From the NCBI RefSeq assembly GCF_001590685.1, contig NZ_CP014616.1:3905001-3969000 (forward strand): a DNA stretch of 64,000 nucleotides, given 5' to 3'. The notes beneath the pieces were generated by a model that was not told where the DNA came from, did no database searches, and saw only the letters and a program-made list of their open reading frames with translations. The position numbers were made by a program, and so were the translations under genes. Origin of the DNA: Sporosarcina psychrophila. Lineage in GTDB: Bacteria > Bacillota > Bacilli > Bacillales_A > Planococcaceae. Shown here piece by piece: positions 5,520 through 61,400 of the stretch; the stretch's first letter is position 1, and each line of letters opens with the position of its first letter.

Positions 5520-5720
5520 CGAAGGAGCGACACTAATGAAAGGCAGCCCAATGTCGCCGCGTCCTGCGGCAAAGGCTGCACACCCGCATCCTGCAGGCGC
5601 CGAAGCAATAAGACCAAGGAGGGATGCAATTCAATCCCTCCCAAGTGATCTTCTGATGGGCTTATTGCGTGAGGCCATCACCAAGCGACAAAGCGGTGTT
5701 GGAAGAACATTCTTTTTGTA
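5520..5720. other. GC-rich structured element, probable dispersed repeat
   Basis: About 200 nt that are richer in GC than their surroundings and contain nested inverted repeats. An outer stem GCAATAAG (5605-5612) / CTTATTGC (5661-5668) encloses an inner stem GGAGGGAT (5618-5625) / ATCCCTCC (5634-5641). A 71-codon plus-strand frame spans it, but composition and structure suggest it is not a gene. A partial similarity is seen at about 4565-4605. From memory, similar sequence recurs between genes in related genomes; I could not check this. Confidence 0.45.
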
Positions 5721-15060: not shown

Positions 15061-15102
15061 TTGGAGGCTTACGGCGATTCGTTGGACACTTCAAGGGTTC
15101 TA
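15061..15102. repeat. Two-unit remnant of the TTGGACACT repeat family (B4)
   Basis: TTGG begins at 15061 and again at 15082, a 21-bp spacing, with the unit TTGGACACTTCAAGGGTTCT. This matches arrays B1-B3 elsewhere in the window. It abuts the decayed DUF5085 fragment. Confidence 0.6.
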
Positions 15103-15300
15103 CACTCATCTCCGTATAGGTCCGCCCCGCATAGTTTCTTTACTTATTCTTCATTCTATAAGCTACCTCTCTTATTAAAATTAAAGCTTTTAAAGCGGAA
15201 CTTGCAATACAAGATAACGAGCTGCTCCGGCAACACAAAAATCATCGTATAGAATAAAACAAAGCATATGACTGTTATGAAGGCATCCTCGATATCAGCC
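15096..15300 (-). pseudogene. Decayed DUF5085 and membrane-immunity 3' fragments
   Basis: Two gene tails are recognisable on the minus strand. At 15172-15300 a frame reads ADIEDAFITVICFVLFYTMI then FVLPEQLVILYCKFRFKSFN, nearly identical to the C-terminus of the truncated copy at 18725-19063 and close to the intact protein at 20061-20825. At about 15096-15130 the nucleotides match the 3' end of the DUF5085 gene at 19138 (encoding QTYTEMSVGV) with frame damage. Together they mark a third, mostly deleted copy of the immunity/DUF5085 pair. Confidence 0.75.
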
Positions 15301-15321
15301 AATAGGAATGCACTGGAAAAT

Positions 15322-15735
15322 TCAATCCCCTTGAGGTACTTGAATCGAATGTGTTTTTAAATATTCCTTTTTAAAGCCGGAATAGTTTGAGGTCCAAATG
15401 CTATGTACAAAATATAAAAAGGGCAGCGCGGCTACTGGCAATAGAAATAACAAGAACCAATATGGGCTTTCCGTGATTCCTAGGATTGTGCCGCCTATGA
15501 TACCAAACAGAATATAAATCATAGAAATAAAACAAAGACTTGCGTAGACAAGAAAAAAGCAGGTATTTATATAAACTAATACATACACTCTCATCTTTTT
15601 ACTTCTTCCTTGTACGAGTTGACTAAACTTCCAATTCGCCTTTATTTCCGAAGCAGATTGCTTCAATACTTCCCATACGTTCCTTATTATTTTCTTCACG
15701 TTTTCTAGACCTACCTCCCTACATACTTTAAACAT
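15322..15735 (-). CDS. Small two-helix membrane protein
   Basis: Up to 137 residues: a charged N-terminal stretch (IKANWKFSQLVQGRSKK), then two or three hydrophobic segments (VYVLVYINTCFFLVYASLCF and PYWFLLFLLPVAALPFLYFV), then a short polar tail. The ribosome-site-like GGGAGG lies inside the first codons, so the true start may be the GTG at 15699. Not a recognised family. It sits at the distal end of the T7SS accessory region next to lipoprotein and immunity-like genes, so a role in T7SS conflict is possible but unproven. Confidence 0.5.
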   Translation of the reverse strand: MFKVCREVGLENVKKIIRNVWEVLKQSASEIKANWKFSQLVQGRSKKMRVYVLVYINTCFFLVYASLCFISMIYILFGIIGGTILGITESPYWFLLFLLPVAALPFLYFVHSIWTSNYSGFKKEYLKTHSIQVPQGD

Positions 15736-15775
15736 AATAGGCGCTACAACTTCGTAAAAAGCTGTAGCATTTTAG

Positions 15776-16339
15776 TTATTTTTCCAATTCGAATTTAGCG
15801 TTTTCAATTTTCACAGTTTTGTTTTCTTCAGTCATCAATTGAAGTAGTTCTTTCCCCTCTGGTGTAACCGGAACAGTAAATGGAATCGCATGGTTTGGCT
15901 GAACAACTCCTGCAAATGATTCGGATAGGTCTACTTTTTCACTCTTGAATACATATTTTATAGTATCCTCCGTTTCAACGCCCAACGTGTATTCTAACGT
16001 AATATTTTTGATTCCCTTTTCCAATCGATTAATTCCTAAAAATAACATGACACTCTCGCCTGCACTCTTTTCTACAAAGTCAATTGCATGAATACTAAAG
16101 TCTTCCGCAACCCCAATATCGGGATTGGCTTCTACAAGTCCGGACAATTGTTGATACATCTCTTCTTCCAACGTGACGCCATTTTCCTCGTCCGCTTTCA
16201 ATACTTGCATCGAAAGTGCTTGTTGCTCTATCTCTTTTTTCACGTTTTCTTCCTCTCCCGTCTGCGGTTTTTGGTCATTGTCGCCATTACACCCCACTAA
16301 TAGTATTGCGGCGAATAAAATTCTAAGTAGCTTCTTCAT
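15776..16339 (-). CDS. Lipoprotein, paralogue of the one at 17827-18381
   Basis: A 187-residue lipoprotein with signal MKKLLRILFAAILLVGC, lipobox LLVGC, and an acidic linker (DQKPQTGEEENVKKE). The body shares many stretches with the protein at 17827-18381: QVLKADEENGVTLE against QLLKADEEAGVTIE, LFLGINRLEKGIKNI against LFLAINRLDEPMKNI, and QPNHAIPFTVPVTPE against QSNHAVPFSLSITPE. The start was chosen at 16339, where the signal begins. Family not named. Surface lipoproteins in T7SS islands are often immunity or accessory factors; here that is inference from context. Confidence 0.75.
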   Translation of the reverse strand: MKKLLRILFAAILLVGCNGDNDQKPQTGEEENVKKEIEQQALSMQVLKADEENGVTLEEEMYQQLSGLVEANPDIGVAEDFSIHAIDFVEKSAGESVMLFLGINRLEKGIKNITLEYTLGVETEDTIKYVFKSEKVDLSESFAGVVQPNHAIPFTVPVTPEGKELLQLMTEENKTVKIENAKFELEK

Positions 16340-16360
16340 TTCGAGACTCTCCAATCATGA

Positions 16361-16960
16361 TTAAAAATTACTATCGACTATGTATAAGTTTACTATAATG
16401 GAATGATTCAACTTTTTAGTTACGCTGTTCAAATTAGGACTTTCATTGAACGGCCCTAGTTTATCGGTATCCAAAACTACATCTTTTTCCACGCATGTAT
16501 TATTCATAGATGTCGGAATAAGAATCCTATCCTTCATTTGCACGTGTTGTTTTTCAACGCCAGTAAGTATACGTGGATAGATGACGCCATTCCATGTGTC
16601 GTTAGGAGCCCCGTGCATATAGAGCGTGTAATTATTCCCCAAAGTTTTAGAGCATTCAACTACATTCTCTGTACCAAAATAGAATACGTTTTTCTTTTTT
16701 CCATCCGTTATTATTTCCACAGTCAAATTCGTTCTGGACATAATCCAGAGCGCATTGGCGAACACTTCCTCTAACTTAACTTCACCGTCGACGAGGTTAA
16801 CAAGCCCACGAAGATGAAATTTCTTATACGTTTTCTCCCATTCCTTTTCTATTTCCTATTTTGTTAACGCTATAAATGGATTGGAAAAACCGATGATTGA
16901 CTTTGTATTCAGCGTTTGCAACATAACGAAAATATCATTTTCCGTAAACTCTGGAATCAT
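16361..16960 (-). pseudogene. Hypothetical gene interrupted by an in-frame TAG
   Basis: From the ATG at 16960 the frame reads MIPEFTENDIFVMLQTLNTK and on through NPFIALTK, then meets TAG (16856-16858, codon 35). It continues in the same frame as EIEKEWEKTYKKFHLRGLVN and runs without further stops to 16361, about 200 codons in all. The part after the stop is 134 codons if started at the GTG at 16765. Sequence on both sides looks equally coding, so this is a recent nonsense mutation, or less likely a sequencing error or readthrough. Family not recognised. Confidence 0.7.
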
Positions 16961-16964
16961 ATCT

Positions 16965-17528
16965 TCACTTCTTTCTATTACTTTTTTTAGATCCGTCTTG
17001 TCTTTCTTTCAGTGGTAAACTAAACTCCGGATAAACCTGCTTTACAAGATCCTTGTTTTTGACAATATAAAAGTAACGATGCAGATATACAGAAAAATAT
17101 GCTGTTATAATTGATAATAGTGAAATTAAAAAAATGAAAATCATCATTTTTGCGGACTCACTATAGACAAACGTTAATATAAGTTGGCCAATTACATAAC
17201 CTAATCCTGCGAATGATAACCATCTAACATTAATACTCTCCATCTGTTGCATTTTATGATATGTTCCTGTGTACAGCGCCTTTATATTCAACCAGTTCAT
17301 CGTTACCAGTAAGCCGATAAAGAGAAGAAATCCAATAATAAAAGGACCTTTCCCTTCTGCTCCTAAGTGAAGATACAATAACTTTTGTATTGCTAAAAAA
17401 TAGACATATGTATTAACAACCCCATATACACCAAAAAAGAGATAATAGGACTTCTCAAATTTGTATGGGGCGAATAAATAAAGCAATGCCCAAATTTGTA
17501 GGATTGCTACCGGCACAATTGCCGCCAT
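16965..17528 (-). CDS. Polytopic membrane protein, start uncertain
   Basis: From the first ATG (17528) it encodes 187 residues with five or so hydrophobic helices and a basic tail (KERQDGSKKSNRKK). That ATG has no ribosome site, and the same frame stays open upstream for 54 more codons, encoding KIGENRIDTITLSYLKFQ and a further membrane segment (FFLILLYVIGVIPILGV). It ends at ATAGGAG-AGT-ATC (ATC at 17688-17690). The natural start therefore appears to be a codon mutated from ATG to ATC, or a non-canonical one. It is not a recognised family and lies 5 nt from the next (broken) gene. Confidence 0.6.
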   Translation of the reverse strand: MAAIVPVAILQIWALLYLFAPYKFEKSYYLFFGVYGVVNTYVYFLAIQKLLYLHLGAEGKGPFIIGFLLFIGLLVTMNWLNIKALYTGTYHKMQQMESINVRWLSFAGLGYVIGQLILTFVYSESAKMMIFIFLISLLSIITAYFSVYLHRYFYIVKNKDLVKQVYPEFSLPLKERQDGSKKSNRKK

Positions 17529-17696
17529 AAAATAAATAAACGAAAATGGTACTCCTAAAATTGGAATTACACCAATTACATATAATAATATTAAGAAAAA
17601 ACAAATAATATTAGATCTGTTTTCCTTAGGCGTTTGGAATTTTAAATAAGATAATGTAATTGTATCGATTCTATTTTCCCCGATTTTGATACTCTC

Positions 17697-17813
17697 CTAT
17701 CCGTCATACCAAGATGAAACTTTATTAATGATGCCTGTTGTTCTCTTTTTTATTGCATCGCCAATTAAATTATAAATACGAACAACTAAAAGCGTTGCAA
17801 TCATAAGTAGCAT
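17697..17813 (-). CDS. Possible 38-residue hydrophobic peptide
   Basis: MLLMIATLLVVRIYNLIGDA followed by an amphipathic basic tail ending SSWYDG. It overlaps the hairpin at 17789-17824 and lacks a good ribosome site. It may be the tail of a lost gene (LXG and related proteins often end in a W-containing amphipathic helix) or a genuine micro-membrane protein. Low certainty. Confidence 0.25.
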   Translation of the reverse strand: MLLMIATLLVVRIYNLIGDAIKKRTTGIINKVSSWYDG

Positions 17814-17824
17814 TGCAACGCTTT
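17789..17824 (-). terminator. Rho-independent terminator of the second lipoprotein gene
   Basis: AAAGCGTTGCAAT and ATTGCAACGCTTT form a 13-bp perfect stem with a 10-nt loop, immediately after the stop codon at 17827. The minus-strand tail is UUUU-rich. Confidence 0.85.
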
Positions 17825-17826
17825 CA

Positions 17827-18381
17827 TTAATTTACTGAATCAAATTTAAAGTTATCCATCTTCACAACTTGGTTATCTTGTTCAAGTGTGTCGATGAGTG
17901 CTTCTTGTTCAGGCGTTATGCTCAGAGAGAATGGAACTGCATGATTCGATTGAATGATACCTGTTTCCTGCTCGGAAAGGTCCACTTCAACGCCCTCCCA
18001 CACAAATGCACCATTATCATGACCTAATGTATAGTCGAACTTGATGTTTTTCATAGGTTCATCCAAACGATTGATGGCTAAGAAAAGCAATGAAGCGTTT
18101 TCTGTTCCACTGTCCACGATATCAATAATATTAATACTGAAATCATTGGCGAGTCCCATATCTGCATTTTCCGTAATCATTCGATTTAACTCTTTATAGA
18201 CTTCGCTATTTTCAATCGTTACCCCTGCTTCTTCGTCTGCTTTCAATAATTGTAATGAAAGTGTCTGTTGTTCAACTGTTTTATCCACTTTTTCTTCAGC
18301 CCCTTTTTCCCTATTATTATCCTTTGAGGCACATCCTGCCAATAGTAAAACTACTATCAAAAAAAATATGGTTTTTTTCAT
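17827..18381 (-). CDS. Lipoprotein, T7SS-island paralogue
   Basis: A 184-residue lipoprotein. Signal MKKTIFFLIVVLLLAGC with lipobox LLAGC, then a charged linker (ASKDNNREKGAEEKVDK). The ATG at 18381 follows AGGAGG at ideal spacing; longer upstream frames are rejected. The paralogue at 15776-16339 shares the QxLKADEE, LFLxINRL and QxNHAxPF blocks. It lies directly downstream of truncated immunity and DUF5085 genes, has its own terminator, and appears intact. Function unknown; it may protect the envelope or act in secretion. Confidence 0.78.
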   Translation of the reverse strand: MKKTIFFLIVVLLLAGCASKDNNREKGAEEKVDKTVEQQTLSLQLLKADEEAGVTIENSEVYKELNRMITENADMGLANDFSINIIDIVDSGTENASLLFLAINRLDEPMKNIKFDYTLGHDNGAFVWEGVEVDLSEQETGIIQSNHAVPFSLSITPEQEALIDTLEQDNQVVKMDNFKFDSVN

Positions 18382-18428
18382 GCGAATCCTCCTAATCAAA
18401 TTGCAAATAGTAACGCATCGCCTGTTCA

Positions 18429-18712
18429 TCATTGCACGCCTACAGACATCTCCACATTGGTTTGCCCTGCATTCGTTTCTTTGAACTCTATGAATATGGG
18501 CGTTTTCCGACTTATTTCATGCTCTTCAATATAGGTGAGAAGCTCCCAAAACGTTAGCTGTGATTGGACATCAAAGTCATCTGTTAGTCGAGTCATAATC
18601 ATGCGGTCGTTCAGGAAATAACTGTTAAAATTAATTTCCTCTTCTGCTTCAATTGGAATAAACACTTCGGCAGTGGGATTGTTCATAATGGAAAAGAACT
18701 TCTTTCCAACTT
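18429..18712 (-). pseudogene. 5'-truncated DUF5085-like gene
   Basis: Starting at MNNPTAEVFIPIEAEEEINF the frame matches the C-terminal half of the intact protein at 19138-19587 (NPTDEVMTAELFLPI; FHSYFLVDRM against FNSYFLNDRM; ending MSVGVQ against MSVGVL). Upstream codons still encode the homologous GKKFFSI just before the ATG, but the N-terminal half is missing. No ribosome site fits. A remnant of a duplicated DUF5085 gene. Confidence 0.75.
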
Positions 18713-18724
18713 CTTTCCTACAGC

Positions 18725-19063
18725 TTAGTCTTCAGAGTTCATATAACCCCTTTTATCGAAATTAAAGCTTTTGAAGCGGAACTTGCAATACAAGATGACG
18801 AGCTGCTCGGGCAATACAAAAATCATCGTATAGAATACGGCAAAGCATAGGACTGTTATGACAGCCTCTTCGATATCGGCCAAATTGAACGTTCTCACGA
18901 TAAATTGAACGATAAACACAAGTCCAGTACTTCCAATAATAACGGCTGGAATATACGTTTTCGTTTCGAATTTCGCTCGGAGTTCATCTCGTTTCGATCC
19001 CTTTTGATACTTCCCTCTTTTCAATAAAACAGAAAATCGGATGAGAGTAGCAACGAATAGCAC
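18725..19063 (-). pseudogene. 5'-truncated copy of the membrane immunity candidate
   Basis: 112 codons equal to the second half of the protein at 20061-20825: FVATLIRFSVLLKRGKYQKG against FIATFVRFAILLRNGHYRKG, and LPEQLVILYCKFRFKSFNF in both. The first three membrane helices are missing, and the fragment begins next to the terminator at 19076-19115, as if a deletion fused the tail of one copy to the end of another unit. It may still be translated as a three-helix protein, but a ribosome site is not evident. Confidence 0.75.
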
Positions 19064-19075
19064 ACCTCCAAACTC

Positions 19076-19115
19076 AAAAAACCTTGAAAGACTTAAAGCC
19101 AGTCAAGGTTTTTTT
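19076..19115 (-). terminator. Rho-independent terminator after the DUF5085 gene pair
   Basis: AAAAAACCTTGA and TCAAGGTTTTTT flank a short loop, 23 nt past the stop of the gene at 19138. U-runs are present in both directions. It ends the T7SS/LXG operon. Confidence 0.8.
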
Positions 19116-19137
19116 GACCCAATCTTCTAAATAAGTA

Positions 19138-19587
19138 TTATAAAACCCCTACACTCATCTCCGTATAGGTCTGCCCCGCGCGGCTTTTTTTGTACTCTAC
19201 AAAAATAGGTGTTTTTTGAGTTTTTTCATGTGCGTTCATATACTCCATAAGCTCCCAATACTTCACCTGTGCTTCCACTTCAAAATTGCCTTTGATTCGT
19301 GTCGTGAGCATACGGTCAACTAGGAAATAGCTGTGGAAATTAACTTCTGCTTCCTTCGGGATTATAAAATGATTCCCTTTAATGGGAAGGAATAATTCAG
19401 CTGTCATAACTTCATCGGTCGGATTACTGATGATTGAAAAGAACATCGGTCCCGTAATTTGATAGCCATACTCGTCTAGAATCGATACAAAATCCGTTAA
19501 AGCAAGATCAATTTCTTCGGGTAAAAAGTTATATAGTTTGGACGCGACATTGCGGTATGCAATCTGATGGTTTTCTGCAATCATCAT
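19138..19587 (-). CDS. DUF5085 family protein
   Basis: A 149-residue cytoplasmic protein. The stretch LPEEIDLALTDFVSILDEYG, then GPMFFSI, AELFLPI and FHSYFLVDRM, is characteristic of the DUF5085 family as I remember it, found in Bacillales and Listeria beside LXG toxins. The start is the ATG at 19587, which overlaps the stop of the preceding DUF5085 gene (coupled translation); longer frames upstream are shadows. Probably an accessory or chaperone-like factor for the LXG module (inference). Truncated and decayed copies lie at 18429 and 15096. Confidence 0.75.
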   Translation of the reverse strand: MMIAENHQIAYRNVASKLYNFLPEEIDLALTDFVSILDEYGYQITGPMFFSIISNPTDEVMTAELFLPIKGNHFIIPKEAEVNFHSYFLVDRMLTTRIKGNFEVEAQVKYWELMEYMNAHEKTQKTPIFVEYKKSRAGQTYTEMSVGVL

Positions 19588-20039
19588 GCATCGCCCTGCC
19601 CTTTTATCGGCACATAGAGATCGATGATGATATCTCCGTAGACATCCAGTAAAACGCAATAATAAGTAGTGTCCAATTCGATTTGTTGCGTGTTGGCGTA
19701 TGCCTTCACTTCTTCATAGGCAGCGGCGAAATCCATTTTTTCATCAGCCTGCCGTAGGACCAATGCACTTCCGATGCTTAGGTTTTCATGGAAAGTAAAA
19801 TCAGACTCATCTACTAAAACGACTGGACTGCTGATTGGCAAGTAGTAGGTGAATTTCCCGGATGTTTCATCCCCTAGGTTTTGAACAAATGAGAAAAATA
19901 CCGGACCGTTTTTGTAGACATCTTTATTGAGCGTGAACTCTTCTAGCATGAAGATGGCTTCTTGCCAGTTCTCTTTTTTTTGTTCTGTTTCATATGTTAG
20001 TACGTTATTGAAAGTCAGTGAACGTTTTTCGATTCCCAT
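19584..20039 (-). CDS. DUF5085-like protein
   Basis: A 151-residue protein related in layout to its neighbour: an N-terminal MGIEKRSLTFNNVLTYE block, then FMLEEFTLNKDVYKNGPVFF, then FTYYLPI and a C-terminal DLYVPIKGQGDA. Soluble, with no signal peptide. AAAGGGTG precedes the ATG. It follows the membrane immunity candidate by 21 nt and overlaps the next DUF5085 gene. The two members may form a heterodimer (inference). Confidence 0.7.
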   Translation of the reverse strand: MGIEKRSLTFNNVLTYETEQKKENWQEAIFMLEEFTLNKDVYKNGPVFFSFVQNLGDETSGKFTYYLPISSPVVLVDESDFTFHENLSIGSALVLRQADEKMDFAAAYEEVKAYANTQQIELDTTYYCVLLDVYGDIIIDLYVPIKGQGDA

Positions 20040-20060
20040 TTACAAACACCCTTTCTAACA

Positions 20061-20825
20061 TCACTTTTCGTTATATAAGTTTCCTTGTTCATTAAAATTA
20101 AAGCTTTTAAAACGGAACTTGCAATACAAGATGACGAGCTGCTCGGGCAGGATGAATAGCATGACGTAGAACAGTAAAATGCCTATCGCAATGACAACCA
20201 TGATATTGATATCTGTGATTGCAGAGGTCCTGGCAATGTACTGGATCACAAAGACCAATCCAATTCCGCCAAGAACAGCGGCTGGTATGTACGATTTTGT
20301 TTCAAACCGTGTTCTAAGCTCATCTTTTTTCGACCCTTTGCGATAATGTCCATTTCGCAGTAAAATAGCGAAACGAACGAATGTTGCGATAAAAACCAGT
20401 AACCCTATCAGGAGTGTGATATAGGTGAAATTCAGAAGTGATTCTGGTGCAACCGACGAGCCTTCCCCTTTCTTTCCGATGAAAAATAATGCACAGATAA
20501 AAAGAGAAACGGAAAATAGGTTTTGGGCCACTAAGATGGACAGTAAATACTGGACCTTGCCACTTCTTTTATACACTGCTGGAATTGCATAAATAAGAGA
20601 CAGCACAATAAGTCCCGCCGTTATCCAGAAATGAACCTTCAATATTTCATCTTTGTATGGATAAGCTGTCACATCTCCTGCAACAAAATATTCTAGTGAG
20701 AATAGTAATGCCTGGAGGAATACGCATAGAACCAGGACACCCGCCAAAGCAGAGGGGCGCTGCCTACCTGATTCAAGAGGTCCTCTTAGAACTTCGAAAT
20801 CTTCAACTGTTCGTTTGGAGGACAT
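20061..20825 (-). CDS. Six-helix membrane protein, candidate immunity to the LXG toxin
   Basis: A 254-residue integral membrane protein with about six hydrophobic helices: ALAGVLVLCVFLQALLF, WITAGLIVLSLIYAI, LLSILVAQNLFSVSLFICAL, YITLLIGLLVFIATFV, YIPAAVLGGIGLVFVIQ, IGILLFYVMLFILP. It ends in a basic KFRFKSFNF motif. The ATG at 20825 is inside the end region of the LXG operon: the LXG stop is at 20846. Immediate 3' position behind a toxin whose C-terminus looks pore-forming, plus several truncated copies further downstream, is the usual pattern for immunity genes. Direct evidence of neutralisation is lacking. Confidence 0.7.
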   Translation of the reverse strand: MSSKRTVEDFEVLRGPLESGRQRPSALAGVLVLCVFLQALLFSLEYFVAGDVTAYPYKDEILKVHFWITAGLIVLSLIYAIPAVYKRSGKVQYLLSILVAQNLFSVSLFICALFFIGKKGEGSSVAPESLLNFTYITLLIGLLVFIATFVRFAILLRNGHYRKGSKKDELRTRFETKSYIPAAVLGGIGLVFVIQYIARTSAITDINIMVVIAIGILLFYVMLFILPEQLVILYCKFRFKSFNFNEQGNLYNEK

Positions 20826-20845
20826 CAAATGCACCCTTTCTTCGC

Positions 20846-22423
20846 TCAATGGAACCACCCTTTAATATGGTCCATTGCTGATTTATCGTCATCTCCAAAT
20901 TTGACATTCAATAAGGAGTTCACTGCTATTCCTGCCACTACACCGACTGCGGTACCTACACCCGGTATCGGGATTAGCGCTGTACCGGCTGCAGTGAATC
21001 CGACTTGTACTGCGCCGCCGATCGCTAAATCGATTGCCGTGTCAACTGTTGCCCTACCTGCAGCTGCACCGTCGTCTAGTCCTTCGTCTTTCGCTGTAGA
21101 ATAGTTACTATAATAACTAAGACCTGCTCCTAAAGGTGCGAGTGATTTAGCAGCTCCTTTTACAATGCCGCTATTCGCAATGCCTTTAAAATCAACGACA
21201 TCCGTAAAGGACTTACCTGCGCCTTTAATGGTCGCTGTTCCTATTGTTTTTGCCTGTTGTTTAATGGTTGCTTGGTCATTCCAGTAAGCCAAAGTTGGAT
21301 GCTTTTTCAGTACACTCTCTCCAGTACCTGACCAGCCGCTCTGTCCCGATTTCTGTGACGCAAACTTCAGCATCGCCTGATTGGTAGCTTGAATGCCATA
21401 ATGCTTCGGAGACCATTTTTTATTCCCTTTAGGAAGTCCTGCCATGAGTTCTTTAAGTGCTCTTGCATCGGGATTGACCTTTAAACGGTCTAATGCGGTT
21501 TGGGTTGCATTGATGCGATATGAATAGTTGCCTGTTTGCAGATTTAAGTGTCTTGAAGTACTCAAACCACCGTCTTTACCTGCAACATACATGCCAAAAC
21601 TAGAGAGCCCTCCAGTAATCGTACTGTTCGCTTTTTTTGCCAAACCGACAGCTTCTTTCAACATCATTACATAGCCATTGGCAGAAGTAGTTGATACCTC
21701 TCCCGTTTCATCCACTGAACCGTCTTCGACAACGCCATTCATAACGTCAACTCGGTGTTGCAGTTCTGTTTTGAGCGGTTGGTTTTCCGATTGCTCCGCC
21801 CACTGTTCAGGTTGAAAATCTATATCGGTCAGGCCATTGCTCATCATACCTTCTATTTCAAGCAACCACAGTTCCATTGTCAGCAAATCCGCTTCAATCT
21901 GCGTTAATGCGGCTGTCTGCGTTGCATCGAATTCATGGAGATCAGTGACCGTTTTTTCCTGCTTCGTTTGTGCACGTTTCACGCCTTCGTGCACTTCGCT
22001 GTCATTCAAGTGCGGAAGAGCGACGATGTCACTGACTTCATCCATGATAGCATTCGCTTCGTCCGTCAAAGTGAGCGTTAATTGGTCAATTGTTGTCAGT
22101 CCTTGTTTAACGTCACTTTCGAGAAAACTTTCTTGGATGTAACCGTTCGAAGCCGATTCCAGCGTGTCGAGAGCGGATTTCATTTGGCATAGAACGCTGT
22201 CATAAGAAGATTTAAAGGTCGTGAAAAACTGTAAGAATGGCATATGACAATCGTTATAAAATGCTCGGATAGCGTTTCCGCCTTGCCCCTTCAGGGAATC
22301 ATCCAGCGCAACGAGCCCTCCAACGGCAGTTTCAATTGCTTTCATCTCACCTTCCAAACGGCTGAGCATAGTAATATTGTTCTGCAAACCTTCTTCAAAT
22401 GGGCTGACGTCCAGTACCTTCAT
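20846..22423 (-). CDS. LXG-domain T7SS effector with glycine-zipper C-terminus
   Basis: A 525-residue type VII secretion substrate. Residues 1-220 are a long helical LXG domain starting MKVLDVSPFEEGLQNNITML. The middle (about 300-420) is a linker with SPKHYGIQATNQAMLKFASQ. The C-terminus (about 420-515) has GLSYYSNYSTAKDEGLDDG, then a glycine/alanine-rich membrane-like tract (AIGGAVQVGFTAAG, IPIPGVGTAVGVVAGIAVN), ending MDHIKGWFH. No nuclease, ADP-ribosyl or NAD-glycohydrolase motif is seen, so membrane disruption, as reported for glycine-zipper LXG toxins such as TelE, is the likeliest activity. It overlaps the upstream partner gene by 4 nt. Confidence 0.82.
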   Translation of the reverse strand: MKVLDVSPFEEGLQNNITMLSRLEGEMKAIETAVGGLVALDDSLKGQGGNAIRAFYNDCHMPFLQFFTTFKSSYDSVLCQMKSALDTLESASNGYIQESFLESDVKQGLTTIDQLTLTLTDEANAIMDEVSDIVALPHLNDSEVHEGVKRAQTKQEKTVTDLHEFDATQTAALTQIEADLLTMELWLLEIEGMMSNGLTDIDFQPEQWAEQSENQPLKTELQHRVDVMNGVVEDGSVDETGEVSTTSANGYVMMLKEAVGLAKKANSTITGGLSSFGMYVAGKDGGLSTSRHLNLQTGNYSYRINATQTALDRLKVNPDARALKELMAGLPKGNKKWSPKHYGIQATNQAMLKFASQKSGQSGWSGTGESVLKKHPTLAYWNDQATIKQQAKTIGTATIKGAGKSFTDVVDFKGIANSGIVKGAAKSLAPLGAGLSYYSNYSTAKDEGLDDGAAAGRATVDTAIDLAIGGAVQVGFTAAGTALIPIPGVGTAVGVVAGIAVNSLLNVKFGDDDKSAMDHIKGWFH

Positions 22424-22722
22424 TGTGACACCTGCTTCGGTCCTGCAAGTGTGCACTGCATGACAGATGCTACTTTTTCATCCGATTCACTCATAAACTT
22501 GACTGAATTGGTAGTCGTTACACTATTAGCAAGAAGCACCGTTTGATAACTCGTTAGTAACGTTTCTAGCTTAGTCGAAAGCTCCGTCAATTTCGTCACG
22601 ACATCCAGTGTATTCCCTGTAATTGGTGATTCCGCTTTCGGATTAAGCAATGTGGTTGCATTGCTCATGTCACTGATTTTACTTTCAACATCTGCATACA
22701 CTATTTTCACTTCGGTAGTCAT
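22420..22722 (-). CDS. YwqI/YxiC-like small LXG partner protein (DUF5344-like)
   Basis: A 100-residue helical protein with no signal peptide: MTTEVKIVYADVESKISDMS at the start and an alpha-helical body rich in Thr/Leu (VVTKLTELSTKLETLLTSYQ). Size, position between a DUF5082-type gene and the LXG gene, and composition match the YwqI/YxiC class, which bind LXG domains and form the secretion signal. It has 4-nt ATGA overlaps with both neighbours. Confidence 0.75.
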   Translation of the reverse strand: MTTEVKIVYADVESKISDMSNATTLLNPKAESPITGNTLDVVTKLTELSTKLETLLTSYQTVLLANSVTTTNSVKFMSESDEKVASVMQCTLAGPKQVSQ

Positions 22723-23081
22723 CTAGTTTTTGCCTCCTCTGCTTCTTCCTTAGCTTCCGCCTCAAGACGCGCAATGGTCTGTTCGATAGAAACGATTTCA
22801 GCGTTAAGCGAATTAATCTTGTCAGCAATTGCAGTAAACACGTTCGTGAACTGGGCTCCGGTTATTTCCAGGAAAGGTGTATGGATTCCCGCTTCACGAA
22901 TATCTTGAAAAGCAGTGGCCAGCGTACCATGCCATGTACTCGTAGATAATTCTGGTTCCAGACACTTTTTTTCATCCGATTGAAATTCCGATTGTTTTAT
23001 CCCTAAGTCTGATTGGCATTTGGTGAGACGCCTCACTTCTTCCAGCTTTTTCCGTAATAGTTCATTGTAATAAGCCAGCAA
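22719..23081 (-). CDS. YwqH-like small LXG partner protein (DUF5082)
   Basis: A 120-residue coiled-coil protein starting LAYYNELLRKKLEEVRRL with an internal W (STSTWHG) and a long C-terminal helix rich in Glu/Ala (EQTIARLEAEAKEEAEEAK). This is the layout of DUF5082/YwqH proteins, helical partners of LXG toxins. The start is a TTG at 23081 with AGGAGGAAAAGAC upstream. First gene of the LXG cassette, 12 nt after essA, so the toxin cassette is expressed with the secretion machine. Confidence 0.8.
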   Translation of the reverse strand: MLAYYNELLRKKLEEVRRLTKCQSDLGIKQSEFQSDEKKCLEPELSTSTWHGTLATAFQDIREAGIHTPFLEITGAQFTNVFTAIADKINSLNAEIVSIEQTIARLEAEAKEEAEEAKTR

Positions 23082-53784: not shown

Positions 53785-56700
53785 TCAAGATGCAATTTGC
53801 GTATCAGCTAAACCAACCTGTTTCCAAATCAGTTCCACCCACTCCGGATGATCAATAAACGGATTACGGTTACCTTGCCATTCCTGGATGACATTGTTGC
53901 GATTCCGTTCAAATTCATCGACTGGGTCTTGTTTATGCCATTCTAGTAGGACTGAAAGTTTACCATGGTATGGTGCACTTCCGTTATTCAGTTTTTCATT
54001 TAATTCGAGGTCTACACGATCGCCTTTTTCATAGCGTGTCGCCATATAGAAGAGAATTCTTGCTACGTCGCCTTTTACTCGATCTGGTGGCTCAAATGAA
54101 TTCGTAGTTTTAAAACATCCGTTACATCCTTTAACTGCGCTTCCGCCGTTATCAAAATCCAAATTTCCTCTTAAACCATTTACTTGAACATCCGTAGGAC
54201 GCAAGTGATGGATATCTGTGCCTTGGCCTATACTTGTTCCAAAGTCACCGTGCGATTTTGCCCAGGTATGTTCGCGGTTCCAGTCGCCGTTATTCCCTCC
54301 GTTACGAGTTTTCGAGCGGGACTCTCCTGAATAAAATAGAATCACATTGTTGGCGTTATTTGGGTCTTCATCTGTTTCACGCAATGCTACCCATGCTTGA
54401 TCGTAAGAAAGCTCTATATGTCCATCAATAATTTCATGAAGCGCGTTTTTTAACGCTTGTCCATCTTTACCAATCGCACCTTTGTAATAGTTATCTGTTG
54501 GCAATTCAACATCAACTGTTACCGTTACGGAAAAACTAATTGTAACAGACTTATTCCCGTCTGAAGCCGTCACTCCTACGATATAGTTACCTTCAGAGAG
54601 TGTTAGATTTAATGAATTCCCTTCAATTGTGCCCAGCGTAGACACGAAAGTAAGCCCGTCGTTTTCAGGTTCGGAAAAGTAGTCAGTCAATAAGAGTGAG
54701 ATCGATTCCCCATTTTTAACTGTTTGATTCGGAATAGCTTTCTTTACAATCGGTGCATTGTTTCCACCAGGCAAAGAAGGAACCACAATGGGTTCCCCTT
54801 TCGCATTTGTGAATATAATGTTTTCCTTACTTGCACCGTTGATAAATTTAATGTCTTGAATGTTTTCAGCGCCTCTAACTTCTTTTACGTTCGCGCCATC
54901 AATGATGACTTCTTTTACATGAGTACCCTTGATATCAATAATCGCTCCAGACTCAACTGACTTAAGTGTTACTGCTGTGCTTGCAAAGCCTACACCATGG
55001 AATTCTGCATAAGCACCTGTGAACACAATACCTTCGATAATAACTGACTTGTCGTCGAGTGTAATAGAAACGCTCGGCTTACCAATTGTTAATTTTTTCG
55101 TTTTAAGATTTTTAATGTTGTATATTTTTTCAGCTTTGCTTGGCACAACAACATCTTCACCTTTAAGATCAATTTGAACCATTACAGGGTCATGGTCACT
55201 TGCACGGCCTTGAGCTTCTGTATAGTTTGCATTGATATGGATCATGTCTACTTCTGTTTTGTTTTCTAAGTTTTTAGAAACAAGAATATGGTCTAATACT
55301 TGGTTGTTTCCTTGGAAGAAATAAGAGAAACGATCGTTAGCTGGTGCTTTATCTACCATATTAACCATTTCGTTACCTTTAAGTATTTCTAGTGTTTTTG
55401 TAAATTCGAAGTCGTTCATATCCCCAGCAAGAACGATGTTTAAATTAGGATCTTTTGCTAATCCGTCTTTGATGAACGCATTAACAGTAGTAGCTAATTT
55501 AAAGCGTTCTGCTTCAGAACCTAAAAATGGAGGTTGTGAAGAGCCCCATAATGATTGGTCCCCGCCTTTAGAATTTAAGTGCACACCGATGACAACTACT
55601 TTTTTCCCTTTGAAGTCAAATTGAGCTGCAATCGGCTTACGTGTATCTTTAAATTTGGATGGATCTAGCACACCTGGATTCAATGCCAAGTTTCCTTGTG
55701 CATCCCATGAATTTCCTTCTGAACCAGTGCCATTTTCACCTTCGACTAATGAAACACGTTCCGGATTGTACAGGTAGCCAACACGAATGTTACCACCAGG
55801 TGCTCCCCCATTATCATTATCTTTAGGCGCAACCTCAGTCCATTTATACGTTTTACCACCTGCTGCAGTAATCGCCGCGATTAAGCGTTCATAGTTTTTT
55901 GATCCATCGACGGTTCCTGAATTTGTTTCTCCATCATTATCTTGCACTTCTACTAATGTAATGATATCGGGATTTTTCATGTTCGTTACAAATGTTGTTG
56001 CAATTCTTCTAACCTTTTCATCGGAAGTTGTCATAGAGAAATTTTCTATATTGTAAGATGCTACTGTTAGTTTATCCTCAGTAGGTTCAATATGAGTTAT
56101 TTCTACTGTTCTATTACCTTTAACAAGTGTCGGTAATGTTTCAGGTAATACTCTGTATCCATCAGCTGTATAGGAGATTACGCCAATAACATCTCCGTCA
56201 AAATGATCTCCTGATGTAATATCAACTGATCCCGTATTTGTTAAGAATATCTTTTCTGGATTGTAGTCATCCGCTGCAATAGTAAGCCCACCTAATAGAT
56301 TGAACTCATTATTTGTTGTACTCTCCACTACGATTGGAGTAGCTCCACTATATGGAGGACCAACTACTTTTGCATTTGGGAATGAAAGCCGCATAAATTC
56401 TACTGATTCCCAGAAATCGATACCGTCTTCCGCCGGATCAAATGAAGTTAAGTTATCATTATCAATTATTTTATTTGGTGGAATAATATCTACTCCTACT
56501 ACAAGCGGTGCTGGAAGTTCTGCTGTTCCATCTGTTTTAACTTGAGTTGCATTAATGCGCGTTGTAGATAGATTTACGCCACTACCATTTTCTGCCACAG
56601 TACCTGTCACTTTTACTTTAGCGCCAACTTTAACACCATTTGCCGATTTGTTCACTTGGATTGCTTCTGATGTCGAGTTGTCTTTATCTGCATTTTCCAC

Positions 56701-58374
56701 ATCTTGCATCACAAAGTTTGTTCCATCAATTACGTACGTTACTACACCAGTCACTTCTGTCACTGTTGCGCCAACATATGGTGATTGATGACCTTTTCCT
56801 TGGATTTCTCGAATGATTACACCATCTGCTTTAACAATCGTGTAAGTAAAACTAAATGCTTCACTTGTCGTTTCGTTTGTTACTGCAATTGCTTTAATCG
56901 TTGTTGTTCCAGTAGGTAATGAGATTGGAACATTGTATTTAGTGCTCGCTTGAGTTGGTTCCGATCCGTCAAGTGTGAAGTAGATTTCAGCACCTTCCAA
57001 ACCTGATCCAAGTGCAATTTTCGTATCTACTGGTACCGTTCCTTCATATGCAGAAGAGTAAACTGCTGGTTTGTTAACTAAGTCAAAACTTTCAAGACCT
57101 ACTGTTTTAAGCTGGAATGTAGTTCCAAAGATTGCCGCGATACCTGTAAGATTTACTTTATCGCCTTCTTTGAAAACTTTGATGAAGTCAGCGTATACGA
57201 CTCCTGTACGATTATCATGTCGTACAAGTACCTTTTCACCATTTTCTGCTATTGCTTGGAATTCAAAAGTCCCATAATTATCAACTGTTAAGTCAGTAAT
57301 CGTAACATTATTTATAGTTACTAATTCTCCTTGTGTATCTTCGTTCACTCCAGACGGTTCTACAACTTGAGCTTCTGGAATGCTATTTCCTGATGAAATC
57401 ACTTCAATAATAGGATTTTCTATTTCTACTTCATTTGAATAAGTTATTACTTTACCTGTTACTTTAATTTTATCCCCAGGTTGAACATTCGCTGAGCTAG
57501 CGTATACATACATACCTGCTGTTTCATCCTGCATGTAGAATGCTCCATTGCCCCATAATCCAGGATTAGTAGTGACAATTCCTTCGATTTGAACAGTTTG
57601 ATTAATCGCAGTACGGGCTCCTGATATTGTTTGAGTATCAGCGATTGTATACGTAAATATTGATAGTTCACTATTGTCTAATTCTTCCTTCATAGCAATT
57701 GCCTTAACTGTAGTTGCCTCATTAATGATAATTGGCGTTGTATATGACGTACTTTCGATAGTTGGATCTGTTCCATCTGTCGTATAGTAGATTGTTGCTC
57801 CAGCAGTTTTTGTTGATAATGTAATTTCAGTTCCCGCTTTAACACTTGAAGCGGGAGTAGATGCAGTTACAGCTTCAACTAAATTAGGGTCTACTGGATC
57901 TGGATTAGTTGGTACTTCATTCGCAAAAGCCATAGATGTTGGTGATTTCAGACCTGCATGATTTCCAAAATATTTTTCAAGCGATCCTCCCATCACCACT
58001 TTTTTCCCTATATTAGTTGGATTTGTCTGCAAGCCAAAATCTGTTCGTAATGAAGCCGGTGAAGCTGGTAATTGAACATATATCATTTTTGATAAATCAG
58101 TTTCTTCAGGAGTTGAAGCAATTGCATAATTGGTATTTGAAGTAGCAGTACCTGTTACACTTGTTTCACTCACTACAAAACCTACTATATAACCCTCTAC
58201 TGATATATTTTTACTCGCACCTACTACATATTGTTCAATTGCTTCATCAACCGTTATTGACGTCTCTGCTGAAGCACTTGTTACTGATATGAAAGGTGTA
58301 ATCATTGAAACTACTAGTAAGAACGCTAATACAATCTTACTAAAAACATGATTTAATATCCCTTTACTTTTCAT
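53785..58374 (-). CDS. Secreted multidomain dual nuclease (EEP phosphatase/nuclease plus endonuclease I)
   Basis: A 1529-residue exported enzyme. Signal peptide to about residue 38. OB-fold/DUF6359-like N-terminus (to about 160); chitobiase-type C-terminal repeats near 170-245 and 455-525 (GATIYYTTDGTDPT, GAEIYFTLDGSEPT), each followed by an OB-type domain (TVQIEGIVTT, ATVTEVTGVVTY). An endonuclease/exonuclease/phosphatase domain spans about 766-1070 (VASYNIENF, TLVEVQDNDG, VVIGVHLNSKGGD, VLAGDMNDF, RASDHDPVMV). An endonuclease I domain fills about 1290-1529 (WNREHTWAKSHG, GTDIHHLRPTDV, RGNLDFDNGG). The ATG at 58374 follows AGGGG. No anchor is seen. Likely degrades extracellular DNA or RNA together with the upstream nucleotidase. 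Confidence 0.88.
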   Translation of the reverse strand: MKSKGILNHVFSKIVLAFLLVVSMITPFISVTSASAETSITVDEAIEQYVVGASKNISVEGYIVGFVVSETSVTGTATSNTNYAIASTPEETDLSKMIYVQLPASPASLRTDFGLQTNPTNIGKKVVMGGSLEKYFGNHAGLKSPTSMAFANEVPTNPDPVDPNLVEAVTASTPASSVKAGTEITLSTKTAGATIYYTTDGTDPTIESTSYTTPIIINEATTVKAIAMKEELDNSELSIFTYTIADTQTISGARTAINQTVQIEGIVTTNPGLWGNGAFYMQDETAGMYVYASSANVQPGDKIKVTGKVITYSNEVEIENPIIEVISSGNSIPEAQVVEPSGVNEDTQGELVTINNVTITDLTVDNYGTFEFQAIAENGEKVLVRHDNRTGVVYADFIKVFKEGDKVNLTGIAAIFGTTFQLKTVGLESFDLVNKPAVYSSAYEGTVPVDTKIALGSGLEGAEIYFTLDGSEPTQASTKYNVPISLPTGTTTIKAIAVTNETTSEAFSFTYTIVKADGVIIREIQGKGHQSPYVGATVTEVTGVVTYVIDGTNFVMQDVENADKDNSTSEAIQVNKSANGVKVGAKVKVTGTVAENGSGVNLSTTRINATQVKTDGTAELPAPLVVGVDIIPPNKIIDNDNLTSFDPAEDGIDFWESVEFMRLSFPNAKVVGPPYSGATPIVVESTTNNEFNLLGGLTIAADDYNPEKIFLTNTGSVDITSGDHFDGDVIGVISYTADGYRVLPETLPTLVKGNRTVEITHIEPTEDKLTVASYNIENFSMTTSDEKVRRIATTFVTNMKNPDIITLVEVQDNDGETNSGTVDGSKNYERLIAAITAAGGKTYKWTEVAPKDNDNGGAPGGNIRVGYLYNPERVSLVEGENGTGSEGNSWDAQGNLALNPGVLDPSKFKDTRKPIAAQFDFKGKKVVVIGVHLNSKGGDQSLWGSSQPPFLGSEAERFKLATTVNAFIKDGLAKDPNLNIVLAGDMNDFEFTKTLEILKGNEMVNMVDKAPANDRFSYFFQGNNQVLDHILVSKNLENKTEVDMIHINANYTEAQGRASDHDPVMVQIDLKGEDVVVPSKAEKIYNIKNLKTKKLTIGKPSVSITLDDKSVIIEGIVFTGAYAEFHGVGFASTAVTLKSVESGAIIDIKGTHVKEVIIDGANVKEVRGAENIQDIKFINGASKENIIFTNAKGEPIVVPSLPGGNNAPIVKKAIPNQTVKNGESISLLLTDYFSEPENDGLTFVSTLGTIEGNSLNLTLSEGNYIVGVTASDGNKSVTISFSVTVTVDVELPTDNYYKGAIGKDGQALKNALHEIIDGHIELSYDQAWVALRETDEDPNNANNVILFYSGESRSKTRNGGNNGDWNREHTWAKSHGDFGTSIGQGTDIHHLRPTDVQVNGLRGNLDFDNGGSAVKGCNGCFKTTNSFEPPDRVKGDVARILFYMATRYEKGDRVDLELNEKLNNGSAPYHGKLSVLLEWHKQDPVDEFERNRNNVIQEWQGNRNPFIDHPEWVELIWKQVGLADTQIAS

Positions 58375-58420
58375 CCAATTCACCCCTAAAGTTTTTTGTG
58401 AACTTTTACTGTTTTTTAAT

Positions 58421-58464: not shown

Positions 58465-61400
58465 TTAAAGAGTAATTTCACCGTCTACAATGATGCCGTC
58501 CATGTTTAGAATTTCCCCATTAAGTCCTGAAAGATCTGCATTTCCTTTAACCTCAATGTTTGTAATCGACAACGAATCTTTCGGGGTACCAGTTAGTATT
58601 AAATCCCCCATAATCACTGCGTTTTCTAGTTTTTCTGCCTCTGTAACGGAAACTTTCACGTTACCTGCATAAACTTTTGGTTCTTCAACAGTCCCAGAGA
58701 AATCAGCTGCTGAAACTAGTGTTACTGGTGTTACTGGTGTTACTGGTATTTCCGGAATTCCAGTTCCTTCAAATTCATATACCGCAACTGTTCCTGACAT
58801 TTCGTGTGTTGCCGCAAGTAATGCGTTGCCTGTTGGGCTTTCAAAAGCTGAGATAAATCTTAAGCCTTCCGGAGCTACATCCCCTGCAACTTCCTCGGAG
58901 AAGTCACGGCTTGTAATAAATGTCACAAACTCTGGACTTGATGGATTGGTAAGTTCATAAACCATAATACCGCTGATGCGTTCTAAAGCGATAAATGCAT
59001 ACATCTTGCCATTCATTTCACCAGTTACTACCGATTCCGGTTCTGGACCTTTACTATTACTGCGATCATCTACTTTTACATTGTCATTACTTACGTTGAA
59101 GTATTGTTTTAATCTAGGGTCATTTGCAATGATAGATTCGAAATCACTTCCGCTATCAAATGCCAGCTCCATTGTTTTTGCATTAAAGATAGAGAAGCTA
59201 CGTCCGCCATATCCATAAAGTGCTTCGTATTCTCCAGCTTCATTTTTTCCATCTTCAGTCGTAATTTTATAATCATTTAGTGTCGTGAGGTCAAATGCAT
59301 CTAGTTCTTCTTGTGTATATCCTGCATAATGCTCTGCTTTCAATTTAACTTTATCAATAATTTTATCTACTTTTTTATCTTCACTAAACCCTTTATAGTC
59401 ACGTGCATCACCTTCGTTAGGTGTGATGATATACGTTTGAGCTGTATAACCTGTACCTACCGTGAACGTTTCAATTGCATCTGGCATATAGAAGGAAAGT
59501 ATTGGTTGTTTTTCTAGTTTTACTACTCCATCTTTGAGCGCATCTAGTTCATTACCAGTTTTTGAAAAATCTTTCACGCCAAGTCCTTTAACTTGTAGGA
59601 TTTCTCCTTTTACAAGATCTACTGTTGCGATTGCGTTGTTTTCTTGTAGGGAAACGTAAGCCGTTTTGCTATCAGCAGACACTGTTACATATTCAGGCTC
59701 TAATTGAGCTAAGTACGATTTGCCCTTTCCTTGATAAGACATCCGAACTTTATCGTCTAACATTTCTTCCGTAAATTGTAGTTCTGTATGCGCATAAGTT
59801 GCTACATCAATGATTGAAATAGAACCAGCTGGATCAATTAATTCACTTGTTTTCTCCGCATTATCATCTGGTTCTCCTTCATTTGCAACAATTGCTTTTG
59901 TCCCATCCGGAGTGAATGTCACCATGTCTGGTAATGCTCCGACTTGAACAGATTTCAAAAACTTCCCGTCTTTCGTTGCAAATATGATGTAGCCTCGTTC
60001 TGTTTTTGGATTGCTAACTGCAGAAATTGCGATTAAATCTTTTGTTGGATGGGAAGCAATGCTAGTAGTATCAGCTACACCATCAATGCCAAAACTTGAT
60101 AATAAAACTCTTGTCGTTTCTGTAATGCCTGTTAATGTGCCCGATTTCAAATTTTCGAATGATACAATGTCAAAACCTTTTACTGCACCATTTGTTACGA
60201 ATGCTATTTTTAAGTGCGCATCATATGCTAAAATTTCTGTTCCTGTTTCTCCTTGACCGCTGTCATAGCGGGCAACTTGAGAGACTGCTAATTTTTCAGG
60301 GTTCGTATTATAAAAGCCCGTGATTGGATCTTTGATTGGTTCTGGTTCTGGTTCTGGCTCTACTACTTGCCCTGCAACGTCTATAATACGACCTTCAATT
60401 TCAGTTGGAATGGTTTCTAGTGATATTAATTGTTCTCTTAAGTTTTCCCAATCTGAAAGTCCAAGATCAGTTACACGACCTTGTTCATACGCTTTTTTAA
60501 GCACATCATAGCCGTCTCCACCTTTTGCAGTGAACGCGTTTGTTGCTACTGTATATGTCTTAGCGTCTTCGACTGCAGTGTACGTACCATCTGAATTTTG
60601 ATAGTTAATTGAAACTACACGTTGTCCAGCAGGTTTAGAAGAATCGAACTCTACTTTCGCACCTGATACATGTAAGAAACCACCACTTTCAGCAGGATAT
60701 GTGCTAACGCTTAGTTCAAATGCTTCTTTTATTTCTGCACCTGTTATCTCCATTGTTGCTAATGTGTTACCAAATGGAAGTACTTTAATAACATCCCCTA
60801 CTGTGATTGGACCCGCGTCAATATCAGCGCGAATTCCTCCACCATTTTGGAAAGCCATTACGACTTTGTCATTATATTGCTTCGCTTTAATAAGCATGCC
60901 ATCTGTAATTAAATTACCAAGTATCGTTTCATTTTTCCGTACACTTGGTTTCGTATTATCTCCACCTGTACGAGGACTTTCCAATGCAGTTTCAAGAGTT
61001 ACACCAATTTCTTCTTTCTCTATTTCTGAAATTTTATCCGCATATTTTTTAAGCATTTCTTTTGCCTCAACATCTTCTGCTTTATCAACCGTTGCAATTA
61101 ACTTTCCTGCGTGTCCTATTACGACACCATTTTTATCAAATTCAACATCTAAAGTCCCAAGGTAATCTGAATATTGATAGGCTTGTACAATAATTGTTTT
61201 ATCTTTCACTTTCCCATTTCCATCTTTGTCTACAACTACAGGTTTGTCTAACTGAGTATGACTATGTCCACCCACAATTACGTCAATCCCAGCTACATTT
61301 GCAGCTAGTTCTTGGTCATTGTCCATAGCGGCATTATCATCAAAACCAATATGTGTAAGTGCAACGATTTTGTTAACACCCATTGCTTCAAATTCAGCAA

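What the first reader, a model, noticed from the sequence alone, without database searches (positions are those of the whole stretch)
15096..22423. Glycine-zipper LXG toxin followed by a membrane immunity candidate and decayed copies of it
The LXG protein has a C-terminal Gly/Ala membrane-like tract and no enzymatic motif. The next gene encodes a six-helix membrane protein. Truncated second halves of that protein recur at 18725-19063 and 15172-15300, each beside remnants of DUF5085 genes (18429-18712, 15096-15130). The pattern is that of toxin replacement leaving orphan immunity tails. Pore formation is inferred by analogy with TelE-type glycine-zipper LXG toxins.
Basis: partly seen in the sequence, partly recalled or inferred. 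Interest (0 to 1): 0.72.

Follow-up and report, generated by a model that had tools for sequence, protein, structure and literature searches.

The report
Pore-toxin operon with decayed immunity genes
A soil bacterium (genus Sporosarcina) carries a secreted toxin that probably short-circuits rival cells' membranes, its own two-layer antidote, and the broken antidote genes of older, replaced toxins; this is a new relative of toxins known from Staphylococcus and Streptococcus, with a membrane antidote family that appears to be unnamed.

Summary
Window 15096-22423 (- strand) is the 3' end of a T7SSb locus: DUF5082 and DUF5344 partners, a 525-aa LXG protein with an invariant GxxxGxxxG zipper, a 254-aa six-helix membrane protein (here "MP6"), then two DUF5085 genes. 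This is the gene order of S. aureus esxX-exiC-exiA-exiB and S. gallolyticus telE.

MP6 follows this toxin domain in 49 of 69 loci across many Bacillales and co-diverges with it. It is not housekeeping (10 of 101 relatives). It shows no detectable homology to ExiC (DUF5079).

"Toxin replacement" is supported. Both truncated MP6 tails belong to a second type (II), resident in three sister genomes whose LXG N-domains are 79-90% identical but whose C-domains differ. One of those carries an intact type-I MP6 as the reciprocal orphan. A 20-residue scar of another LXG toxin precedes a third decayed membrane gene (16965-17528).

Verdict: a new member of the EsxX/TelE kind with an unnamed membrane immunity candidate. 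Depolarisation, and MP6 protection from outside, are inferred, not shown. Toxin-domain fold prediction failed (pLDDT 53).

The parts
20846..22423 (-). LXG toxin, 525 aa; LXG domain about 1-200, glycine-zipper C-domain about 410-525 with G490/G494/G498
   Evidence: Pfam LXG 212 bits; alignments A2 and A5; zipper glycines invariant in 38 of 38
22719..23081 (-). LXG partner protein, DUF5082/YwqH-like
   Evidence: Pfam YwqH-like 32.4 bits, just under the cut-off of 33.7; position
22420..22722 (-). LXG partner protein, DUF5344
   Evidence: Pfam DUF5344 78 bits
20061..20825 (-). MP6, 254-aa six-helix membrane protein, resident type I; candidate immunity against toxin from outside
   Evidence: AlphaFold2 pLDDT 87.6; directly after this toxin domain in 49 of 69 loci and co-diverging with it
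19584..20039 (-). DUF5085 protein a (ExiA position), 151 aa
   Evidence: Pfam DUF5085 31.1 bits, cut-off 30
19138..19587 (-). DUF5085 protein b (ExiB/TipE position), 149 aa; likely cytoplasmic antidote
   Evidence: Pfam DUF5085 61.4 bits; function by precedent
18725..19063 (-). Orphan MP6 type-II tail 1 (last about 112 residues), truncated
   Evidence: 76-89% identical to type-II MP6 of sister genomes, 55-58% to type I; deletion junction near 19059-19072
18429..18712 (-). 3' remnant of a DUF5085b gene of the former unit
   Evidence: Pfam DUF5085 32.7 bits over model positions 56-137; junction 18707-18711 against L040
17827..18381 (-). lipo1, predicted lipoprotein found beside several LXG loci; possible extracytoplasmic accessory
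   Evidence: Lipobox-like N-terminus; 13 of 101 relatives, 9 of them among the 10 with MP6; within three genes of DUF5085b in 14 of 46 loci
17703..17765 (-). Scar: about 20 C-terminal residues of another glycine-zipper LXG toxin (LXG-III)
   Evidence: 70% identical, E 6e-5; same scar in G002 90% identical, E 4e-8
16965..17528 (-). mp187, six-helix membrane protein paired with LXG-III elsewhere; orphan here, frame open to about 17697 but without a standard start codon there
   Evidence: Homologues directly follow LXG-III in L057 and L060; alignment A3
15776..16339 (-). lipo2, lipoprotein belonging with another LXG unit
   Evidence: LXG-DUF4176-lipo2-mp137 in G050 and G058, and in G060
15322..15735 (-). 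mp137, small membrane protein of the same other unit
   Evidence: Same synteny
15156..15302 (-). Orphan MP6 type-II tail 2 (last 48 residues)
   Evidence: 94% identical to the intact G031 orphan over 48 residues; deletion junction 15301/15302
15100..15141 (-). 3' end of another DUF5085b gene
   Evidence: 86% identical over 42 bp to 19149-19190, E 2e-7

Best explanation
This is an EsxX/TelE-type antibacterial unit of the T7SSb. The LXG domain with its two small helical partners (DUF5082, DUF5344) forms the export rod. The C-terminal domain inserts its glycine-zipper helices into the target membrane and depolarises it. The DUF5085 pair caps the zipper in the producer's cytoplasm before export, as ExiAB/TipE do. 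MP6 sits in the membrane and protects against toxin arriving from outside. C-domain, MP6 and the DUF5085 pair are exchanged together (types I and II) behind a constant secretion locus and LXG N-domain. Exchanges leave previous immunity genes downstream as orphans, intact in some sister genomes, truncated by deletions here. Shown here: anatomy, types, co-divergence, synteny, junctions. Taken from studied relatives: depolarisation, DUF5085 neutralisation. Inferred: MP6 immunity and the order of events.
For: Same gene order as esxX-exiC-exiA-exiB and telE. Zipper glycines invariant in 38 of 38. MP6 directly after this toxin domain in 49 of 69 loci, 48 with DUF5085. Among 101 relatives MP6, DUF5085 and the toxin domain occur in the same genomes. 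Toxin C-domain to MP6 distance correlation 0.88 against 0.52 for the LXG N-domain; partial 0.60 given EssC in a stricter set. N-domains 79-90% but C-domains 58-61% identical between types, with the resident MP6 following the type. Tails in the type-II clade, support 0.993, with a reciprocal type-I orphan in G002. DUF5085 remnants beside both tails.
Against: No activity was tested. The C-domain model is unreliable (pLDDT 53), so topology is not established. MP6 shows no detectable homology to ExiC/DUF5079 (hhalign probability 3-7%), and no constant ExiD-like partner was found although ExiC alone did not protect. Part of the co-divergence reflects strain relatedness, and extra MP6 copies often correlate almost as well as the resident one.
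Confidence: 0.83

Rival explanations
1. MP6 is an export or assembly factor for zipper toxins rather than an immunity protein; the DUF5085 pair is the only antidote.
For: MP6 lies in the toxin operon at a fixed position; the six-helix neighbour of telE did not protect in E. coli.
Against: MP6 occurs in arrays and alone where no LXG gene lies within reach (L068 six copies, L073, L099, L106), as immunity genes do; intact orphans of the other type sit beside a foreign toxin in G031 and G002.
Confidence: 0.1
2. The type-II tails descend from orphan immunity genes acquired by transfer, not from a toxin unit once resident here.
For: Intact orphan MP6-II genes beside mp137 exist in G031 and G027; orphan membrane immunity is common in antitoxin islands. 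This fits tail 2 best, which sits beside mp137 as in those genomes.
Against: DUF5085 remnants, which accompany toxins and in EsxX do not protect from outside, lie beside both tails. Tail 1 is syntenic with complete type-II units followed by lipo1 in G060 and by lipo1 and mp187 in G002.
Confidence: 0.25
3. Tail 1 is still a functional short protein (two membrane helices plus the conserved end) or a recombination reserve, not debris.
For: Its frame is open for 112 residues from a GTG, and its most conserved motif is kept. Recombination between tandem T7SS immunity paralogues is documented.
Against: Four of six helices are lost, its DUF5085 neighbour is truncated, and tail 2 keeps only 48 coding residues.
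Confidence: 0.07

Closest known systems
EsxX with ExiA, ExiB, ExiC, ExiD, S. aureus ST398 (PMC12744356)
   Same: DUF5344 and DUF5082 partners, LXG protein with C-terminal glycine zipper, six-helix gene next, then a DUF5085 pair; orphan membrane immunity genes in strains without the toxin
   Different: MP6 has no detectable homology to ExiC (DUF5079); no constant second six-helix gene (ExiD, DUF5080); a lipoprotein gene is often nearby
TelE with TipE, Streptococcus gallolyticus (PMC10434224)
   Same: LXG glycine-zipper toxin, six-helix gene directly downstream, DUF5085 antidote as third gene; several toxin variants between strains
   Different: TelE permeabilises to propidium iodide; not known for this protein. 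Sequence relation of MP6 to Gallo_0563 was not tested
TspA with TsaI (DUF443), S. aureus
   Same: Membrane-depolarising LXG toxin with polytopic membrane immunity and multiple paralogues
   Different: TspA acts only from outside and has no DUF5085 antidote (as described in PMC12744356); no DUF443 match in MP6
T7SSb variable regions of Listeria monocytogenes and S. aureus (PMC10327511, PMC9484751)
   Same: Orphan immunity genes, truncated pieces and recombination among paralogues downstream of essC
   Different: Here resident and orphan types can be matched reciprocally between sister species, and a 20-residue toxin scar precedes one orphan gene

Membership tests
LXG substrates of T7SSb (PF04740) | N-terminal LXG domain, beside a T7SSb locus | tested here: met
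   212 bits, cut-off 26.5; WXG100, YukD, YukC, FtsK/SpoIIIE, EssA upstream
LXG substrates of T7SSb (PF04740) | Partner proteins DUF5344 and DUF5082 | tested here: met
   DUF5344 78 bits; YwqH-like/DUF5082 32.4 bits against a cut-off of 33.7, accepted by position and homologues
EsxX/TelE-type zipper toxins | C-terminal glycine zipper, pattern (G/A/S)xxxGxxxG | tested here: met
   G490xxxG494xxxG498 in a hydrophobic stretch, invariant in 38 of 38
EsxX/TelE-type zipper toxins | Gene order toxin, six-helix protein, two DUF5085 genes | tested here: met
   repeated in most of the 49 linked loci
EsxX/TelE-type zipper toxins | Sequence homology of the toxin domain to EsxX or TelE | not tested
   Their toxin sequences were not fetched; only the published zipper peptide was read
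EsxX/TelE-type zipper toxins | Membrane depolarisation or permeabilisation | not testable with these tools
   Needs expression and dye assays
ExiAB/TipE (DUF5085) | Match to PF16895 | tested here: met
   31.1 and 61.4 bits, cut-off 30
ExiAB/TipE (DUF5085) | Binds the zipper and neutralises cytoplasmic toxin | not testable with these tools
   By precedent only
ExiC (DUF5079) | Homology to DUF5079 | tested here: not met
   No Pfam match; hhalign probability 3-7%; DUF5079 and MP6 never in one genome of 399
ExiCD pair | A second six-helix gene constantly linked to the toxin | tested here: not met
   mp187 family is limited to a few loci and pairs with another toxin

The most novel reading that the evidence does not exclude
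MP6 is a new, unnamed family of membrane immunity proteins that, without an ExiD-like partner, protects Bacillales from zipper toxins arriving from outside, and it fills the gene slot that the unrelated DUF5079 family fills in Staphylococcus.
Probability: 0.5. Interest if true: 0.55.

Novelty: new member of a known kind. Interest (0 to 1): 0.42.

Why it matters
It extends the two-compartment immunity model (cytoplasmic DUF5085 pair plus a membrane protein) from Staphylococcus and Streptococcus to many Bacillaceae and Planococcaceae. It points to a candidate membrane immunity family without a Pfam, NCBIfam or PDB-fold match. It also offers a natural test set: sister Sporosarcina genomes with reciprocal resident and orphan immunity types, so type specificity can be tested directly.

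Tried and rejected
mp187 as the ExiD counterpart: my first idea, rejected because its homologues follow a different LXG toxin in Psychrobacillus and a scar of that toxin precedes it here. Duplication of the resident MP6 as origin of the tails: rejected, they are type II. Housekeeping membrane protein: rejected, 10 of 101 relatives. Enzymatic C-domain: no support; ten members hit the P22 gp7 DNA-ejection family at best 5.6e-5, probably shared hydrophobic composition. MP6 homology to DUF5079: not detectable. PDB fold search with MP6: nothing at E 0.001. AlphaFold2 of the toxin C-domain: unusable. lipo1 as a specific fifth component: undecided, the lipoprotein accompanies several LXG types. ORF 16361-16765: no family found. 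Toxin sequences of the studied pathogens were not fetched.
Full report
The locus. On the minus strand a T7SSb core runs from the WXG100 protein (32962) to EssA (23093), followed by DUF5082-like and DUF5344 small helical proteins, the LXG protein (20846-22423, 525 aa), a six-helix membrane protein (20061-20825, 254 aa, here MP6) and two DUF5085 genes (19584-20039, 19138-19587).

What the toxin looks like. The last 70 residues contain two hydrophobic stretches joined by a near-invariant PIPG motif. The second stretch carries G490xxxG494xxxG498; these glycines are identical in all 38 aligned homologues. A single GxxxGxxxG is not rare for this composition (P 0.16-0.26 by shuffling), so the weight lies on the conservation. 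No enzymatic family or solved structure matches. AlphaFold2 gives helices but no reliable fold (pLDDT 53); [quoted passage not shown]

Relation to known systems. EsxX of S. aureus ST398 depolarises membranes. In the cytoplasm it is neutralised by a DUF5085 heterodimer (ExiAB) that holds the zipper; from outside by two six-helix proteins, ExiC (DUF5079) and ExiD (DUF5080), which were needed together (PMC12744356). TelE of S. gallolyticus has a similar layout: DUF5085 TipE protects, and the six-helix Gallo_0563 does not, against toxin made inside E. coli (PMC10434224). The window shows this layout, so the DUF5085 pair is the best-supported antidote here, and MP6 is the candidate for protection from outside.

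MP6 as a family. It has no Pfam or NCBIfam match, a confident six-helix model (pLDDT 87.6) and no PDB fold match. A scan of GTDB genomes gave 63 loci in many Bacillales genera, among them Psychrobacillus, Bhargavaea, Solibacillus, Virgibacillus and Gracilibacillus. In 49 of 69 examined loci (these 63 plus the window and five more from its relatives; a few are the same place twice) the gene directly upstream is an LXG protein with this C-domain, and 48 of those have DUF5085 genes. Twenty-nine loci have several MP6 genes, and some arrays have no LXG nearby (L068, six copies). Among 101 relatives, MP6, DUF5085 and the toxin domain mark the same genomes: all eight genomes with a strong toxin match have both. 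Over 399 Bacilli, DUF5079 was found in one genus only (Staphylococcus by inference, its DUF5085 included) and MP6 in six genera; no genome has both. Toxin C-domain and MP6 distances correlate at 0.88, LXG N-domain and MP6 at 0.52; the partial correlation given the N-domain is 0.83. In a stricter set of 24 closer loci with EssC as background it is 0.60, permutation P 0.001, while EssC to MP6 given the toxin is still 0.34, so strain relatedness contributes.

Types and replacement. Against the window, the LXG N-domains of G002 and G027 are 90% and 89% identical, but their C-domains only 61% and 60%; the G002 and G027 C-domains are 93% identical to each other. Window and G031 carry type I; G002, G027 and G060 carry type II. 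EsaA/YueB and DUF5344 are 95% and 98% identical between window and G027. The resident MP6 follows the toxin type. Orphans of the other type are present: both window tails fall in the type-II clade (support 0.993), G031 has an intact type-II orphan, and G002 has an intact type-I orphan 79% identical to the window's resident MP6. G002's toxin and MP6-II lie on different contigs, so their adjacency is assumed. The two window tails differ (83% over 48 residues) and group with different orphans, so they are probably two separate relics.

How the fragments arose. Compared with G031 or G060, three deletions describe them: the 5' half of one MP6-II lost near 19059-19072; DUF5085a and the 5' part of DUF5085b lost at 18707-18711; the 5' part of another MP6-II lost at 15301/15302. 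The junctions show only short homologies. DUF5085 remnants beside both tails argue that complete toxin units once stood there, because the DUF5085 pair follows the toxin and, in EsxX, does not protect from outside. Acquisition as an orphan with later decay is not excluded, least of all for the second tail.

Further relics in the same stretch. Between lipo1 and the six-helix gene mp187 lies a 20-residue scar (17703-17765) that matches the very C-terminus of another zipper LXG toxin, intact in Psychrobacillus directly before the mp187 homologue; the scar is clearer in G002 (90%). mp187 has no standard start codon at its expected 5' end. lipo2 and mp137 are downstream partners of a further LXG unit (LXG-DUF4176-lipo2-mp137) seen in G050, G058 and G060. 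The stretch thus keeps parts of at least three other toxin units.

Judgement. The corrections are the role of DUF5085, the type of the tails, and the extra relics. Function rests on precedent, not on a test made here. The overall kind is known; the membrane protein family, its spread and the reciprocal types are what is new.

Noticed in passing
window 16361-16960 (-): Decayed open frame (one in-frame stop near 16858) between mp187 and lipo2; no Pfam or NCBIfam match.
   Followed up: partly
window 15776-16339 and 17827-18381 (-): Two members of an unnamed lipoprotein family that accompanies several kinds of LXG loci in Bacillales; possibly an extracytoplasmic accessory or antidote.
   Followed up: partly
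L057:11863-14075, L060:6082-9063: A second glycine-zipper LXG toxin type with its own six-helix partner and no DUF5085 pair, in Psychrobacillus.
   Followed up: partly
G000:C1:3037728-3048756 (L047): A second island in the same genome with several LXG genes in tandem and no T7SS core gene among those recognised there.
   Followed up: no
window 5532-5597 (+): Rfam Bacillaceae-1 RNA, 55 bits.
   Followed up: no
window 53785-58383 and 58465-63585 (-): Two adjacent very long ORFs (1532 and 1706 aa), not examined.
   Followed up: no
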